Assembly: GCA_021295755.1 (NCBI GenBank)
Contig: JAGWBT010000053.1
Span: forward strand, 1 to 32,693
Direction: 5' to 3'
Origin: Candidatus Poribacteria bacterium
Lineage (GTDB): Bacteria > Poribacteria > WGA-4E > PCPOR2b
DNA length: 32,693 bases
Shown: piece after piece, positions 209 through 7,468 of the stretch
Layout of the letters: every line of letters begins with the position of its first letter
How positions within the stretch are numbered: the first letter of the stretch is position 1
Program-made: the position numbers and the translations under genes
Notes under the pieces: model-generated
What the model was told of the DNA's origin: nothing
What the model saw: only the letters and a program-made list of their open reading frames with translations
Database searches by the model: none

Positions 209-1187
209 ATGAACAAACTAGGCGTCGGACTGATGGGCAGCGATGTCCATGTATCTGGCTATATCAAAGCGTTTACCGCCTGCCCTGACGCCGAATTAAT
301 CGGCGTTGCCGACGATGAGGAACAAATAGCGCAAGATCTGTGTCGTCAAGGTCAAATGAAGTATGCCACGACCGACTATCAACAACTATTGGACGATGCA
401 GACATCCAGATCATCTTGGTTTGTACCCCAGATCTCTTTCACGCCGAACACGCTATCGCGGCGCTTCGAGCAGGAAAGCACGATGGGGGTCGATATAGAA
501 AGCTGCCGAAAATTGGTGCAAACGGTGGACGAAACCGGACTCACGTTCATGGCGAGTCAATTCATGCGATTTGAACCTATCTACAAGCAGATTAAGGGGA
601 TCTACGACACTGAAGGGATCGGACGCGCTTTTTTCGTCGAAGGCAGCTACATCCACGACATGCGATCCCTCTACAATCCGGTAACTTGGCGGTCTCATCC
701 AAGCACCGCACAGAACATTCTGATCGGGGGCGGCTGCCACCCCTTCGATCTACTCCGGTGGACAGTCGGTGCCGACGTTACAGAGGTCCACGCCTATTCC
801 AATGGGTACGCCGCCCAAGATTTTCCGCTCGATGACTGCTACATCTTCACCTTTCAGTTTGAAAACGGTTGCGTCGGCAAAGTGCTCGTTACCAGCGGCT
901 GCAAAGGTCGCGGGATGGGCGAAGGCTTCCTCTCTATCTACGGCACAGAAGGCACAATCTGGAAAAACCGTATCCACCATCCCGATGGTCGCACAGAAGA
1001 AATTGTCGCAGCGGATGGAAATGCAATTCAGGAAGCAGTTTCCCATTTCGTTGACTGCGTGATTAACGGGAAGCAACCACTGATTGATGTGCGAGAAGGC
1101 GCAAAAACCGTTTCAGCCTTAGCCGCAGGTGTAGAGTCCGCGGAAACAGGGAAGCCAGTAAAGGTTATCAACTGGTTCGATAGCTGA
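209..1187 (+). pseudogene. Gfo/Idh/MocA family oxidoreductase, frame broken by a short deletion
   Basis: Two overlapping frames together make one Gfo/Idh/MocA dehydrogenase of about 325 aa. The first (from ATG 209, site AGAAGGA) holds the N-terminal dinucleotide-binding half up to IILVCTPDLFHAEHAIAALRAGKH. The second continues from about base 483 with GVDIESCRKLVQTVDETG, RFEPIYKQIKGI, GGGCHPFDLLRW and the C-terminal sheet domain to TAG 1185-1187. In relatives the text between 'AGKH' and 'MxxDIE' is a VxxEKP motif whose lysine is needed for catalysis. Here only one base separates CAC (479-481) from ATG (483-485), so about 17 bp appear lost. The motif is gone and the frame shifts. The gene follows a hydroxyacid dehydrogenase with a 12-base gap. 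A sequencing or assembly fault is possible, but a 17-bp loss is not a typical homopolymer error. Confidence 0.75.
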
Positions 1188-1280: not shown

Positions 1281-2726
1281 ATGCAGGGAAAAAAAATAAC
1301 CCCACTACAGGGTGAGGCTCTACGCCGTATCCCCGCCATCGAACAACTGCTCTCTCGTGAACCGTTTCTCACAATGCAGGAAGGCTATTCGCGGGATCTC
1401 ATAACGGAAGCCTTACGCACCGTCACTGCGGAAATTCGGGGGCAAATTCTTAATGCAGAGATTGTAGAACCTCCCGATGAATCGGCGTATGCAGCACTCG
1501 TCCGCGTGGAACTCGAATCCCTAACCACCCCTGCACTCCGTCCGATTGTCAACGCCACCGGCACGATTACACACACCAACCTCGGCAGATCGCTGCTCAG
1601 TGCTTCGGCAGCTGAAAGCCTCGCGCAAGCCGCTGCTAACTATGTGAATCTGGAGTATGATTTGGATACTGGAGAGCGTGGGCATCGAGATCGAATCACT
1701 GAACCCCTGTTGAAGCGATTGACGGGATGCGAAGCCTCAACTATAGTGAACAACAACGCTGCAGCCGTGTTACTTGCGTTGAATACCTTAGCACGCGACA
1801 AAGAGGTCATCGTGTCTCGCGGCGAACTCATTGAGATCGGCGGGGCGTTCCGCATCCCTGATGTGATGGAAGCAAGCGGAGCCATCTTGCGCGAGGTAGG
1901 GACAACAAACCGAACACATCTTCGAGACTACGAGAACGCAATCAACGAAAACACGGCATTGATGCTAAAGGTACATCCAAGCAACTACAAGGTCGTCGGA
2001 TTCGCTTCAACCCCCACAATGGAAGAAATCACCGAACTTGGACGTCAGCACAGCGTACCAACGATGGAGGACCTCGGAAGCGGTTCGTTGATTGATCTGA
2101 CCCGTTACGGTTTGCCCTATGAGCCGGTGGTACGCGAGCGGATAGACGCCGGCGTCGATGTCGTCACATTCAGTGGCGACAAGCTGCTCGGAGGATCGCA
2201 GGCGGGGATTATTGTGGGTCGGTTGGACGCAATCGAGCAAATTCGCAAAAATCCATTGATGCGAGCGTTGCGCGTCGGAAAACTCACCATCGCTGCACTC
2301 GAAGCTACCCTACGGCTCTACCTTAACGAAAAGGAATTGACCGAAAAACTACCAATGCTTCAGCGTTACACGCGACCAATAGCCGAGCTCCGTGAGGTCG
2401 CTGAAAAACTTGCCAATCATCTCCGGCAAATCTTCGGTGACGCAATCCAAGTTACGGTTGAACACAGCACCGCACAGATTGGTAGCGGTTCGCTCCCCGT
2501 CGATACATTACCGAGTCTAGCTGTCAGCCTACACGCACCGCAAATCTCCGCCGAAACCCTCGCCACACACTTCCGGTCACAACCGAGCCCTGTGATCGGT
2601 CGCGTACAGGATGAGCGGCTCCGGTTCGATGTTCGGACGGTGTTTGACAGGGAGTTGACGTGGATTGGCAATGCAGCAAAGGGTGTGATGGAACAACTTC
2701 AAGCAGAATTGAACCTTTCGACTTAG
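1281..2726 (+). CDS. selA: L-seryl-tRNA(Sec) selenium transferase SelA
   Basis: SelA is a PLP enzyme that converts seryl-tRNA(Sec) to selenocysteyl-tRNA(Sec) using selenophosphate. The 481-aa product is close to the usual length (about 460). It starts with the N-terminal tRNA-binding helical segment (LRRIPAIEQLLSREPF, about residues 14-29). The PLP-fold core follows: NATGTITHTNLGRSLL (91-106), the glycine/arginine-rich GERGHRDR (131-138), TIVNNNAAAV (154-163), EVGTTNRTHL (205-214), KVHPSNYKVVGF (230-241) and FSGDKLLGGSQAG (297-309). The PLP-binding lysine is K301. The ATG has only a weak purine-rich stretch upstream. selB starts 15 bases after the stop and tRNA-Sec follows that, so the three form one locus. 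All expected motifs are intact. Confidence 0.97.
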   Translation: MQGKKITPLQGEALRRIPAIEQLLSREPFLTMQEGYSRDLITEALRTVTAEIRGQILNAEIVEPPDESAYAALVRVELESLTTPALRPIVNATGTITHTNLGRSLLSASAAESLAQAAANYVNLEYDLDTGERGHRDRITEPLLKRLTGCEASTIVNNNAAAVLLALNTLARDKEVIVSRGELIEIGGAFRIPDVMEASGAILREVGTTNRTHLRDYENAINENTALMLKVHPSNYKVVGFASTPTMEEITELGRQHSVPTMEDLGSGSLIDLTRYGLPYEPVVRERIDAGVDVVTFSGDKLLGGSQAGIIVGRLDAIEQIRKNPLMRALRVGKLTIAALEATLRLYLNEKELTEKLPMLQRYTRPIAELREVAEKLANHLRQIFGDAIQVTVEHSTAQIGSGSLPVDTLPSLAVSLHAPQISAETLATHFRSQPSPVIGRVQDERLRFDVRTVFDRELTWIGNAAKGVMEQLQAELNLST

Positions 2727-2741
2727 AGGGGACAAGGTATT

Positions 2742-4667
2742 ATGCGACATGTCATCATCGGCACCGCCGGACACGTTGATCACGGAAAATCTGCGCTGAT
2801 ACACGCCCTCACCGGCATCGAAACCGATCGGCTCAAAGAGGAGAAGGAACGCGGTCTGTCAATTGAATTGGGATTTGCCTACTTCGATCTGCCGGACGGT
2901 TCACGTGCCGGTATCGTTGATGTGCCCGGTCACGAGCGGTTTATCCGAAACATGCTCTCAGGCGCGTACGGGATGGACATGGTGCTGCTTGTCGTTGACG
3001 CAAAAGAAGGTGTGCAAGAGCAGACGCTGGAACATCTGGAGATCCTCGATCTACTCGGCATTTCGACCGGCATCCTAGTGATGACGAAGGTGGATCTGGT
3101 GACGCCCGACCAGTTGGCGGAATCCGCCGAAATGTCCCAAGAGATGTTGGTCGGAACAACCCTCGAAGGCTCACCCACCGTCCATGTCTCAGCGATAACA
3201 GGCGAAGGCTTAGATAAACTCAAGAGTACAATCGTGGCTTGTGTTATTAATACGGAAGCGCAAGCAGAGCGGCATAATGGAATCCCACGCCTATATGTGG
3301 ACCGCGTCTTTTCGATGACAGGGTTCGGCGGGGTAGTGACAGGAACGCTGATGGGCGGCGCAATCCAACGCGAGCAACGGCTAGTTATGCTACCCCAAGG
3401 ACAAGAGGTACGTGTCCGCGGTGTCCAAGTTCACAACGAACAAGCTGAAAACGCACAATCAGGACAACGGACAGCATTGAATCTGTCAGGCATCACCAAA
3501 GACCAAATCGAACGTGGAAATGTACTCTGTCCAAGCGGATTTGCGGAAGTGACAGATAATATCGACGTGTCACTTGACCTCCTGTCATCCTTCCCAAGAA
3601 TGCTTGAACACTGGACGCGCCTACGGTTTTATCTCGGAACAAACGAGACATTTTGCCGCGCAATCCTACTGATGGACGAAGCAGTCTTGCCGGGAGATTC
3701 GACGCAGCTCCAGTTGCGCCTTGAGAAACCGATTTTGACCTTCAAAGGGGATCGGTTTATCGTGCGCGACTTCTCAGCCCAACATACGGTCGGTGGCGGA
3801 CGGGTGATTAACCCATTCGCCCCACGCCACAAACGATTCACGGAAGAGACACTGGAAACCCTAACCGTGTGGGAAGACGCAGATGATGCCGAAGTTGTGA
3901 GACTGGTATTGGCACAAAACCGTGAACTCTGCGTGCCAGAGGAATTTCTCCGCTACTACCTACCTTATACCGATGCAGATTTCAGAGGGTTACTAAAAGG
4001 CCTTGAGGATCATCAAGAAATTGTGCGTTGGGCGGGAGCCACGCCGCTCGTTTCTGCGATGGATCGGACAGAACAAGCACAAGCCAGTCTGATTAACGCG
4101 CTAGCAAATTTCCATGAAGATCAACCGCTCGCCCCCGGTCAAAACACCTCGCAACTCCGTCTCCAACTCAAACTCGACGAAATCGGCTTTGAGAAAATTG
4201 TCGATCAACTAATTCGCCAGCAAGAGATTGTCACCGATGGGAATCTGCTGCGCCTATCATCGCACCAAATCCAATTCTCAGCCGAAGAAGAAGATATCAA
4301 GGAAAAGGTTGAAGGGATATTCCTTGACGCTGGTATCAACACCCCAGCCATGACTGAATTGACCGCCCAGTTGTCCAAATATCCGCCGCAGTCAGTGCAG
4401 CAGACCTTTTACGCGCTGATGAACCTCGGACGATTCATTAGAATTGCAGATGACCTATTTATTCATACCCAAATTTTTGAAGAAATTGTGAATTCGCTTA
4501 CCGATTACCTCCAGAAAAATGATATAATAACCGTTGCCGAATTCCGAGAACTTGCACAGACCAGCAGGAAATACGCTGTACCGTTTCTCGAATACTGCGA
4601 CGGGCAAGGATTGACGATCCGTGAAGGGAACCACCGACGGCTACGGAGATCTCAACGTCGGGCGTAG
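2742..4667 (+). CDS. selB: Selenocysteine-specific translation elongation factor SelB
   Basis: SelB is the GTPase that carries Sec-tRNA(Sec) to UGA codons marked by a SECIS hairpin. The 641-aa product is slightly longer than E. coli SelB (614). The GTPase motifs are G1 GHVDHGKS (10-17), the switch I region around KEEKERGLSIELGF, G3 DVPGH (60-64) and G4 TKVD (115-118). A T at the first G4 position is normal for SelB. EF-Tu-like beta-barrel domains follow (for example RVFSMTGFGGVVTGTL and HTVGGGRVINP). The last 240 or so residues are a charged helical region that fits the winged-helix domains that bind SECIS RNA. The start has a good site, GAGGGGAC, 8 bases upstream. It lies 15 bases after selA and 94 bases before tRNA-Sec. 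Confidence 0.97.
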   Translation: MRHVIIGTAGHVDHGKSALIHALTGIETDRLKEEKERGLSIELGFAYFDLPDGSRAGIVDVPGHERFIRNMLSGAYGMDMVLLVVDAKEGVQEQTLEHLEILDLLGISTGILVMTKVDLVTPDQLAESAEMSQEMLVGTTLEGSPTVHVSAITGEGLDKLKSTIVACVINTEAQAERHNGIPRLYVDRVFSMTGFGGVVTGTLMGGAIQREQRLVMLPQGQEVRVRGVQVHNEQAENAQSGQRTALNLSGITKDQIERGNVLCPSGFAEVTDNIDVSLDLLSSFPRMLEHWTRLRFYLGTNETFCRAILLMDEAVLPGDSTQLQLRLEKPILTFKGDRFIVRDFSAQHTVGGGRVINPFAPRHKRFTEETLETLTVWEDADDAEVVRLVLAQNRELCVPEEFLRYYLPYTDADFRGLLKGLEDHQEIVRWAGATPLVSAMDRTEQAQASLINALANFHEDQPLAPGQNTSQLRLQLKLDEIGFEKIVDQLIRQQEIVTDGNLLRLSSHQIQFSAEEEDIKEKVEGIFLDAGINTPAMTELTAQLSKYPPQSVQQTFYALMNLGRFIRIADDLFIHTQIFEEIVNSLTDYLQKNDIITVAEFRELAQTSRKYAVPFLEYCDGQGLTIREGNHRRLRRSQRRA

Positions 4668-4761: not shown

Positions 4762-4855
4762 GGGAGGGGATAGGGTCCGGTGGCTCTACTGGTCTTCAAA
4801 ACCAGCTTGCCCATGCAAGTGGGTAGGTGGGTTCGACTCCCACCCTCTCCCGCCA
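4762..4855 (+). tRNA. selC: tRNA-Sec, anticodon UCA
   Basis: The sequence folds by eye into the bacterial tRNA(Sec) form. It has an 8-bp acceptor stem (GGGAGGGG with CCTCTCCC, one G-U pair), a 6-bp D stem (AGGGTC with GGCTCT), an anticodon stem CTGGT/ACCAG with loop CTTCAAA, a long variable arm with a CTTGC/GCAAG stem, and a 5-bp T stem (GTGGG/CCCAC) with loop TTCGACT. Discriminator G and an encoded CCA end at 4855. The 8+5 acceptor/T arrangement, the extended D stem and anticodon TCA are specific to bacterial tRNA(Sec). It lies directly downstream of selA-selB. A protein frame drawn across it is spurious. Confidence 0.97.
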
Positions 4856-4872
4856 CACTGCTTCATCTCATT

Positions 4873-5151
4873 ATGCCAATCACCTTTGAATGAGACGAAC
4901 GAAAAAATCAACAAAATATTGAAAAGCATGGCATCAGCTTTCGGAGAGCTGCAACGATTTTTAATGGTCGAGTGCTACAATGGGAAGATAATCGAAAAGA
5001 CTATGGCGAGGAACGACGGATTGCGATTGGACGAATAGAATATAGAATTTTACAGGTAGTTTATACCCTGCGTAACCGGAACAGCCGAATCATTTCAGCG
5101 AGAAAGGCAACGAAAGATGAAAGACGAAAATATCTCCTCATATACCCTTGA
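4873..5151 (+). pseudogene. brnT: BrnT-type toxin frame with in-frame TGA at codon 7
   Basis: Read from ATG 4873, the frame gives MPITFE, stop, then DERKNQQNIEKHGISFRRA, then WEDNRKDYGEERRIAIGRI, then VVYTLRNRNSRIISARKATK and RRKYLLIYP, ending at TGA 5149-5151. This is a nearly full BrnT ribonuclease toxin, whose family begins 'FEWDxxK', carries 'EKHGISF' and ends 'RIISARKAT'. The single interruption is TGA at 4891-4893, exactly where BrnT has tryptophan (TGG). No ATG, GTG or TTG follows close behind that could restart the protein. The 3' end overlaps brnA by 35 bases, the usual brnTA arrangement. It begins 17 bases after the tRNA-Sec CCA. The simplest reading is a TGG-to-TGA nonsense mutation. 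Recoding of UGA cannot be excluded, but no suitable SECIS follows. Confidence 0.8.
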
Positions 5152-5479
5152 CGAAATCAAAGGGCAGGTTGATGAGACCGATTGGGAACGGGTTGACGCT
5201 ATGACGGACGAAGACTTATACAAAACGGCTCAGTCTGACTCAGATGCTCAACCGCTAACCGAGACGGAATTGAACTGTTTCAAACGGGCTATTTATGCCA
5301 ATGGAGAGATGCTGTGGGAGGATGAGCAGACCGTTGGTGAGTTGTTAGCAAATGGTGAAAAGTACGCCTTGATTCCTGTGGATAGGAAAGTTTTGGAGTG
5401 GTTTGAGAAAGCAGATGACCGCTACCTAGCAAAAATGAACGCGGTATTGCGCGTTTATATCGAATCACAAGAAGATTGA
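5117..5479 (+). CDS. brnA: BrnA-type antitoxin
   Basis: This 120-aa acidic protein ends in VDRKVLEWFEKADDRYLAKMNAVLRVYIES. That matches the ribbon-helix-helix tail of BrnA antitoxins (family pattern 'LDxDVLxWFKxxGxGYQTRINAVLRxYM'). The N-terminal half contains DAMTDEDLY and PLTETEL, also typical of the family. BrnA neutralises BrnT and represses their operon by binding its promoter. The start lies inside the last 35 bases of the brnT frame, behind the purine-rich GAGAAAGG. The frame is intact although the toxin frame upstream is interrupted. The RHH strand is unusual in having KYALIPVD in place of the usual VSIRLD, so DNA binding may be altered. Confidence 0.7.
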   Translation: MKDENISSYTLDEIKGQVDETDWERVDAMTDEDLYKTAQSDSDAQPLTETELNCFKRAIYANGEMLWEDEQTVGELLANGEKYALIPVDRKVLEWFEKADDRYLAKMNAVLRVYIESQED

Positions 5480-5590: not shown

Positions 5591-7468
5591 ATGCCAATCA
5601 GGATCTTACCCCCCGACATCTCCAACAAAATCGCTGCCGGCGAGGTCGTTGAACGCCCAGCATCCGTGGTGAAGGAATTGGTAGAAAATGCAATTGACGC
5701 GGAGAGCACAAACATCAATATTGAAATACGCGCGGGCGGCAAGCGACTCATCTCAGTCTCAGATAATGGTGCAGGCATGAGTCGTGAGGACGCACTCATC
5801 GCGATAGAACGCCACGCAACCAGTAAAATCAGCATCGTTGAGGATTTAGAGACGATTCAGACTTTTGGATTTCGTGGAGAAGCACTCCCAAGCATCGCAT
5901 CAGTATCGCAGTTTGAATTGCTGACGCGAACCCCCGACGCGGTCGAAGGCACAAAGATCACCGTCGAAGGCGGCGTGGTTCGCCCCGTCCAAGCAAGCGG
6001 CTGTTCGCCGGGGACACACATCACGGTTAACAACCTCTTTTATAATGTGCCGGCACGGCTGAAATTCCTCAAAACTGATGCGACAGAGTTGAATCACATC
6101 ACAAATCAGGTGATGTGGGCGGCACTTGCAAACCCGCAAACCCAGTGTTCCCTCTCTCACAATAACCGCTCTCTAATCGATGTCCGAGCGTGTGAATCCT
6201 ATCTTGAGCGGATACGCCTGCTATACGGGAAAGAGTTCGCAGAAAACCTGATCGAGTTCGATGCGGATCTACCGAACCTCCATCTGCGCTGTTTTATCGG
6301 AAAACCCGATTTCACAAAGGCAAACCGCAACTATCAACTCTTTTTCTTGAATCGACGCCCTATCCGGAGCAAAGTACTTGGCGCAGCCCTCAACGAGGCA
6401 ATGCGATCCATGGTGCCGAAAGATCGGTATGTCGTTGCGTTTCTGTTCCTCACAATGAGTGGACAGCATGTTGATGTCAATGTCCACCCGGCGAAGATCG
6501 AGGTGCGATTCCAGAATGAGCGCAGCCTTTACAGCGGGGTAGTGCGTCTGCTGCATAGCGGCATCTATAAAAACAAATATATCCCCAAAATAGAGACCGA
6601 AGATAGCAAAATCGAGTCAGCGCAGGATTCTACGCCTGAAGGCAGAGCTATCCCCACGGCCCGCCCGCCCGAACGACCGCGAATCGACGTGGATACTCCT
6701 GTCACACGCACCTCCATCTTCCCTTCGGGATCCCGCGAATCTATACAGCCAACGCCAACACCCGCCACTACCACCACACCGCTACGTCCTGAAGAACTAG
6801 ATCCGCAACAAGAACCCCTACAAGTTGAATCGGTGCAACGACCACAACACCCAATTCCCGACGGAACAGAACTTCAACTTCTCGACTTTGAAGGTGTCCA
6901 GCTAAAAACCAATCTGTTTAATACCTATATCGTTGCAGAAGGTGGAGATCGGGTGTTCCTGATTGATCAACACGTTGCAGCCGAGCGCGTGTTGTACGAA
7001 CGTTATGTCGAACAACTCAAGACAGACAGCATTCCTGTACAAGGGTTGTTGCTACCTGTCACCATCGAAGCGACGCCCCAGCAGCTAACAGCACTTGATG
7101 CCCACAACGAACTATTTGAAAAACTCGGTTTCGATGTGGAGCGGTTCGGTGGAAGAACAATCCTTGTCAGATCTATCCCTGCGACACTACCCACAGGACT
7201 TGTCAACGCAACAGTCACAGATCTACTAGATGGGATCGGTAATGCCACAACACCAACCATAGAACATCTCGAAGTACAAGACAAGGCGCTCATCATGCTC
7301 GCCTGCAAGTCCGCTGTGAAGGCCGGTGATACGCTGACGATGGAGGAGATGGTCAACCTAATCAAAGATCTCTCTCAAGCGAAGTTGCCGTTCAACTGTC
7401 CACACGCACGCCCCATCATTGTGGAGATGCATCGAAATGAACTGGAGAGCCGGTTTAAGCGACGATGA
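5591..7468 (+). CDS. mutL: DNA mismatch repair protein MutL (with endonuclease motif)
   Basis: MutL links mismatch recognition by MutS to strand incision. The 625-aa protein has the GHKL ATPase N-terminus: IRILPPDISNKIAAGEVVERP (3-23), the VENAIDA segment with catalytic E32, DNGAGM, FRGEALPSIASVSQ, and the transducer region with NVHPAKIEVRF. A linker rich in P, T and E (about 330-420) separates it from the C-terminal dimerisation domain. That domain carries DQHVAAERVLYE (from about 459), matching the metal-binding DQHA(X)2E(X)4E endonuclease motif with V for A. ACKSAVKAGD and CPHARP follow further on. This points to a self-incising MutL, as in bacteria without MutH. The AGGAG site starting at 5580 fixes the start. 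mutS is not in the window. Confidence 0.96.
   Translation: MPIRILPPDISNKIAAGEVVERPASVVKELVENAIDAESTNINIEIRAGGKRLISVSDNGAGMSREDALIAIERHATSKISIVEDLETIQTFGFRGEALPSIASVSQFELLTRTPDAVEGTKITVEGGVVRPVQASGCSPGTHITVNNLFYNVPARLKFLKTDATELNHITNQVMWAALANPQTQCSLSHNNRSLIDVRACESYLERIRLLYGKEFAENLIEFDADLPNLHLRCFIGKPDFTKANRNYQLFFLNRRPIRSKVLGAALNEAMRSMVPKDRYVVAFLFLTMSGQHVDVNVHPAKIEVRFQNERSLYSGVVRLLHSGIYKNKYIPKIETEDSKIESAQDSTPEGRAIPTARPPERPRIDVDTPVTRTSIFPSGSRESIQPTPTPATTTTPLRPEELDPQQEPLQVESVQRPQHPIPDGTELQLLDFEGVQLKTNLFNTYIVAEGGDRVFLIDQHVAAERVLYERYVEQLKTDSIPVQGLLLPVTIEATPQQLTALDAHNELFEKLGFDVERFGGRTILVRSIPATLPTGLVNATVTDLLDGIGNATTPTIEHLEVQDKALIMLACKSAVKAGDTLTMEEMVNLIKDLSQAKLPFNCPHARPIIVEMHRNELESRFKRR

What the first reader, a model, noticed from the sequence alone, without database searches (positions are those of the whole stretch)
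4873..5151. brnT toxin frame with TGA in place of the conserved Trp, 17 bases after tRNA-Sec
The rest of the toxin is well conserved and the antitoxin is intact, so only one base (TGG to TGA) separates this from a normal toxin. The organism encodes Sec machinery beside it, so read-through of UGA is worth asking about. The only hairpin downstream (CAGCTTT...AGAGCTG, 4935-4951) starts about 41 bases after the UGA, too far for a bacterial SECIS.
Basis: partly seen in the sequence, partly recalled or inferred. Interest (0 to 1): 0.6.

Follow-up and report, generated by a model that had tools for sequence, protein, structure and literature searches.

The report
Toxin gene broken by stop codon
A small bacterial self-toxin gene sitting just after the selenocysteine tRNA gene has been switched off by an ordinary stop mutation; nothing suggests that the stop is read as selenocysteine or as tryptophan, and many bacteria carry the same toxin broken at the same spot, so it is ordinary gene decay.

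Summary
A BrnT frame runs 4873-5151, its 7th codon is TGA (4891-4893) where the family has an invariant Trp, a BrnA-like antitoxin follows (5117-5479), and tRNA-Sec (4762-4855) lies 17 bases upstream. The recoding idea fails every test I could run. (1) The first 43 nt after this UGA have no predicted structure (0.0 kcal/mol), whereas the genuine Sec-UGA of selD in this genome and five same-genus relatives is followed by a SECIS-like hairpin (-12.8 to -17.7). (2) In more than 80 brnT copies the position is TGG or a stop, never Cys. (3) A same-genus brnT has TAG at this codon; in two unbiased surveys the other stops at this codon were all TAG. (4) At the orthologous site two same-genus genomes share a 213-nt brnT deletion. 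(5) A scan of 85k species found 38 brnT with TGA here across many phyla; 22 lack a SelA match above cut-off, and an intact remaining frame does not depend on SelA. (6) brnT in this phylum often carries stops, at many codons. [quoted passage not shown] A consensus error in this draft assembly remains possible.

The parts
4762..4855 (+). tRNA-Sec gene (UCA anticodon)
   Evidence: ARAGORN; Rfam RF01852
4873..5151 (+). brnT toxin gene, inactivated by a nonsense codon (pseudogene)
4891..4893 (+). in-frame TGA replacing the family's invariant Trp codon (codon 7)
4894..5148 (+). rest of the BrnT frame, open, PF04365 89 bits; Lys-His pair and C-terminal RIISARKA motif kept
5117..5479 (+). brnA-like antitoxin, overlapping the end of brnT in another frame
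   Evidence: weak PF14384; 52% identical to the L125 orthologue
4887..5099 (+). stretch of about 213 nt (brnT body, approximate ends) missing at the orthologous site in same-genus genomes G005 and G001
1281..2726 (+). selA (context)
   Evidence: PF03841 E 2.6e-159
2742..4667 (+). selB (context)
   Evidence: GTP_EFTU and SelB winged-helix domains
5591..7468 (+). mutL-like gene, right flank of the module (named from sequence, not scanned)
   Evidence: orthologue follows tRNA-Sec directly in G002 and G004

Best explanation
This is a decaying brnTA toxin-antitoxin module. A brnT/brnA pair came to lie between tRNA-Sec and mutL in the ancestor of a small clade of this genus. In this genome a TGG to TGA change at codon 7 ends toxin translation after six residues, so no BrnT ribonuclease is made, while the antitoxin frame just downstream stays open and can still be translated. 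In the two relatives that share the site, the toxin has been removed by a deletion. Shown: the stop, the intact rest of the frame, the intact antitoxin, the lesions in relatives, the absence of a SECIS. Inferred: that the toxin is not made, and that selection for losing the toxin while keeping the antitoxin (or simply relaxed selection) drives this.
For: TGA is the only lesion in the frame. An intact orthologous pair with TGG at this codon exists in a same-class genome, L125. Same-genus G005 and G001 carry a 213-nt brnT deletion at the orthologous site, and G001 has also lost the end of brnA. brnA is still under constraint between G000 and G005 (dN/dS 0.25; flanking selA, selB, mutL 0.07-0.09). 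Codon 7 is TGG in all other intact copies, with two TAG and one further TGA and no Cys in the loci examined. The UGA is followed by unstructured RNA (0.0 kcal/mol for 43 nt), against -12.8 to -17.7 for the selD Sec codon in six genomes of the genus. 38 of 39 pattern hits in 85k species are brnT with TGA at codon 7, in cyanobacteria, proteobacteria, Desulfobacteria and others; only 16 of 38 genomes have SelA above cut-off, and an intact remaining frame is about as frequent with SelA (10 of 16) as without (13 of 22). Stops occur at many other codons of brnT in this phylum and in cyanobacteria. The brnT and brnA frames themselves end in TGA, so TGA terminates here.
Against: The rest of the frame is undamaged, which also fits a very recent mutation, a consensus error or low-level read-through. 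In a same-genus pair the TAG-bearing copy still shows dN/dS 0.075 against its intact orthologue, so these nonsense alleles are young or residual function is not excluded. The shared deletion of G001 and G005 conflicts with the local tree that pairs G000 with G005 (59 versus 26 and 23 sites), so the order of events is not simple.
Confidence: 0.88

Rival explanations
1. Consensus or assembly error: the cell has an intact brnT and the TGA is an artefact of a draft, metagenome-like assembly (257 contigs).
For: A single base separates the frame from an intact one. Another gene in the window is frameshifted relative to an intact-looking orthologue. Reads are not available.
Against: Stops at the same codon occur in independent assemblies, including the complete chromosome of Microcoleus vaginatus HSN003, and relatives have lost the same gene by deletion, so a real lesion is unsurprising.
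Confidence: 0.06
2. Leaky UGA: tRNA-Trp misreads the UGA at low frequency, so a small dose of authentic toxin is made and tolerated.
For: The lost residue is Trp, the usual near-cognate product at UGA (general knowledge). The downstream frame is intact in this copy and in about 23 of 38 other TGA copies.
Against: Such selection should favour TGA over TAG, but in the surveys not biased to TGA the other stops at this codon were three TAG (L093, L120, L278) and no TGA in the two phylum scans, plus one TGA (L121) in a wider set. The share of stops at this codon (3 of 17, window left out) agrees with mutational opportunity (6-18%). Relatives deleted the gene.
Confidence: 0.04
3. Selenocysteine is inserted at codon 7, giving a selenoprotein toxin.
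For: A working Sec system: selA, selB, tRNA-Sec in the window and selD with an in-frame TGA in all ten genomes searched.
Against: No SECIS within range; no Cys at this position in more than 80 copies, 1 Cys against 91 Trp in viral contigs; TAG at the same codon in a same-genus paralogue; the same TGA in genomes without SelA; BrnT is an RNase, not a redox enzyme.
Confidence: 0.007
4. A shortened toxin is made from an internal start or by slippage at the A6 run (4900-4905) after an overlapping ATG (4890).
For: An ATG overlaps the stop (ATGA, 4890-4893) and an A6 run follows.
Against: The ATG opens a frame of about ten codons that is out of register with brnT; the first in-frame ATG/GTG/TTG after the stop is about 27 codons downstream, beyond the Lys-His pair reported as needed for activity in BrnT-like toxins (PMC10714953). 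No relative examined shows such an arrangement being conserved.
Confidence: 0.013

Closest known systems
brnTA type II toxin-antitoxin module (BrnT PF04365 / BrnA PF14384; type case Brucella abortus, Heaton et al. 2012, cited in PMC10714953 and PMC11980606)
   Same: Toxin-then-antitoxin order, BrnT profile match, conserved Lys-His pair and RIISARKA motif, BrnA-like antitoxin C-terminus
   Different: Toxin interrupted at codon 7; antitoxin carries an extra middle segment and scores below the BrnA cut-off, although its orthologue in L125 passes it
brnT copies broken at the same Trp codon (38 further species with TGA, three copies seen with TAG)
   Same: Stop at the invariant Trp with much or all of the rest of the frame kept
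   Different: Other genomes and phyla; most hosts lack a SelA match above cut-off
Bacterial selenoproteins with a UGA-proximal SECIS (for example the Sec form of SelD in this genome, L070)
   Same: In-frame TGA in a genome with Sec machinery
   Different: No hairpin in range, no Cys homologues, no redox motif, not conserved in relatives

Membership tests
BrnT toxin (PF04365) | Profile match over the curated cut-off | tested here: met
   89 bits against cut-off 34.5 for 4894-5148
BrnT toxin (PF04365) | Invariant Trp near the N-terminus and an open frame from the start codon | tested here: not met
   TGA at that codon; Trp invariant in alignment A1. It is a BrnT pseudogene, not an intact BrnT
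BrnT toxin (PF04365) | Ribonuclease activity and toxicity | not testable with these tools
   needs expression
brnTA module | brnA antitoxin directly downstream | tested here: met
   open frame 5117-5479, 52% identical to the antitoxin of the intact L125 pair, which passes the BrnA cut-off
Bacterial selenoprotein | Stem-loop immediately downstream of the UGA with a small apical loop holding a guanosine (PMC1088965) | tested here: not met
   0.0 kcal/mol for 43 nt after the UGA, against -12.8 to -17.7 for selD
Bacterial selenoprotein | Cys-containing homologues at the Sec position (criterion in PMC1088965) | tested here: not met
   no Cys among more than 80 copies
Bacterial selenoprotein | UGA conserved in close relatives | tested here: not met
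   relatives have the gene deleted, a TAG at the codon in a paralogue, or TGG
Bacterial selenoprotein | Host encodes Sec machinery | tested here: met
   selA, selB, tRNA-Sec, selD
UGA=Trp reassignment | TGA does not terminate in the genome | tested here: not met
   both brnT and brnA frames end in TGA at their expected lengths

The most novel reading that the evidence does not exclude
UGA at the conserved Trp of BrnT is a recurrent, tolerated 'dimmer': near-cognate Trp read-through gives a trace of authentic toxin, so that bacteria in many phyla keep an attenuated brnTA module rather than losing it.
Probability: 0.03. Interest if true: 0.55.

Novelty: new member of a known kind. Interest (0 to 1): 0.1.

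Why it matters
It settles a tempting but wrong link between a toxin gene and the selenocysteine machinery, and gives a way to test such claims (SECIS control from the same genome, Cys homologues, TAG at the same codon, SelA presence). The by-product, that the invariant TGG of BrnT is broken in dozens of unrelated species, illustrates how often chromosomal toxin-antitoxin toxins are lost by point nonsense.

Tried and rejected
Selenocysteine insertion: no SECIS, no Cys homologues, TAG at the same codon in a same-genus paralogue, no dependence on SelA. A first count suggested stops at codon 7 might be over-represented (4 of 12 in a set partly picked by where the HMM hit began; P 0.004-0.16 depending on the mutation model); with two surveys not picked that way the share is 3 of 17 without the window, as expected. 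Viral contigs gave no stop at this codon (91 TGG, 1 Cys, 0 TGA, 0 TAG), too few to say more. SelA in 16 of 38 TGA genomes has no matched background, so only the within-set comparison (10 of 16 against 13 of 22 intact, judged by eye) is used. PADLOC and NCBIfam gave nothing for either protein. The molybdopterin-oxidoreductase hit with two TGA could not be turned into a clean Sec site and was not used as a control. A dN/dS test on the window's own brnT was not possible because no close intact orthologue exists.

Full report
Observation. The window lies on contig C53 of a 5.03-Mb, 257-contig draft genome. Frame 4873-5151 reads MPITFE*DERKNQQNIEKHGISF...RIISARKATKDERRKYLLIYP* with TGA at 4891-4893. 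The part after the stop is a clear BrnT (PF04365, 89 bits), and the stop falls on the first profile position, an invariant Trp. tRNA-Sec ends at 4855, 17 bases before the ATG; selA and selB precede it. The antitoxin frame 5117-5479 overlaps the end of brnT.

Is it the natural form of the gene? No. An orthologous pair with the same C-terminal ending and a 52%-identical antitoxin exists in a genome of another family of the class (L125), with TGG at this codon and right after the end of a tyrosine integrase gene. In the same genus, G005 and G001 have the module at the same place (tRNA-Sec to mutL), but both carry the same 213-nt deletion of the brnT body, and G001 has also lost the end of brnA. 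G002 and G004 have no module between tRNA-Sec and mutL, and none was found next to tRNA-Sec in G003, where no mutL was recovered. The toxin has therefore been lost in at least two ways at this one site.

Is the UGA recoded as selenocysteine? The genome does decode UGA as Sec: selD has an in-frame TGA here and in nine relatives. That provides an internal control. The 43 nt after the selD UGA fold at -12.8 to -17.7 kcal/mol in six genomes of the genus, with a hairpin whose loop (AGTT in most) starts about 18 nt after the UGA; the 43 nt after the brnT UGA fold at 0.0. Published criteria for bacterial selenoproteins (PMC1088965) ask for a stem-loop immediately downstream and for Cys homologues. 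The first is not met. For the second, more than 80 brnT copies have TGG or a stop at this codon and none has Cys.

Is UGA special at this codon? A same-genus brnT (L093, G002) has TAG at the same codon while its orthologue in G004 has TGG; two more TAG cases are L120 and L278. An exact-pattern scan of one genome for each of 85k species found 39 hits, 38 of them brnT with TGA at this codon, spread over many phyla. Only 16 of the 38 genomes have a SelA match over the cut-off; the remaining frame looks intact in 10 of those 16 and in 13 of the 22 others, so Sec machinery makes no visible difference (intactness judged by eye).

Is the codon a hot spot? In the phylum survey about ten full-length copies have a single in-frame stop, three at this codon counting the window (positions). 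In cyanobacteria eight copies, leaving out the centre genome, have a single stop, one at this codon. Without the window that is 3 of 17, all TAG. The share expected from mutational opportunity alone is 6-18% depending on the transition and G+C to A+T bias. There is thus no clear excess, and no preference for TGA.

Antitoxin. brnA in G000 and G005 differs with dN/dS 0.25, looser than selA, selB and mutL (0.07-0.09) but constrained. Its second half is about 96% identical between the two genomes against about 85% in the flanks, which suggests a recent exchange or strong constraint.

Unresolved. Sites in selA, selB and mutL pair G000 with G005 (59 against 26 and 23; UFBoot 94, with part of the outgroup data missing), yet G005 and G001 share the brnT deletion. 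Exchange between lineages or an ancestral polymorphism would explain this; it does not affect the verdict.

Verdict. A brnT toxin inactivated by a nonsense codon, antitoxin retained; a consensus error remains possible because no reads are available. Ordinary.

Noticed in passing
window 209-1187: A Gfo/Idh/MocA oxidoreductase gene is split by a deletion of about 17 nt with frameshift relative to an intact-looking orthologous stretch in G005: a second broken gene, or an assembly error, in the same window.
   Followed up: partly
L005, L006 against window 4887-5099: G001 and G005 share an identical 213-nt brnT deletion although selA, selB and mutL sites pair G005 with the window's genome.
   Followed up: partly
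window 5250-5475: The second half of brnA is about 96% identical to G005 while the flanks are about 85%: recent exchange or strong constraint.
   Followed up: no
L083 (G005:C21), L078 (G003:C66), L092 (G002:C25): Another brnT copy lies about 5-7 kb from selD in three same-genus genomes: intact in G005, with a TGA in G003, truncated in G002.
   Followed up: no
L140-L178: TGA at the invariant Trp of brnT in 38 species of many phyla, more than half with the rest of the frame intact.
   Followed up: partly
L125:3-272: The intact orthologous brnTA pair in G076 follows directly on the 3' end of a tyrosine integrase gene (PF00589), suggesting that this module type travels with mobile elements.
   Followed up: no
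G000:C212 (L081), G005:C10 (L079), G012:C142 (L080): Further brnT copies with several stops or frameshifts: brnT decay is common in this phylum.
   Followed up: partly
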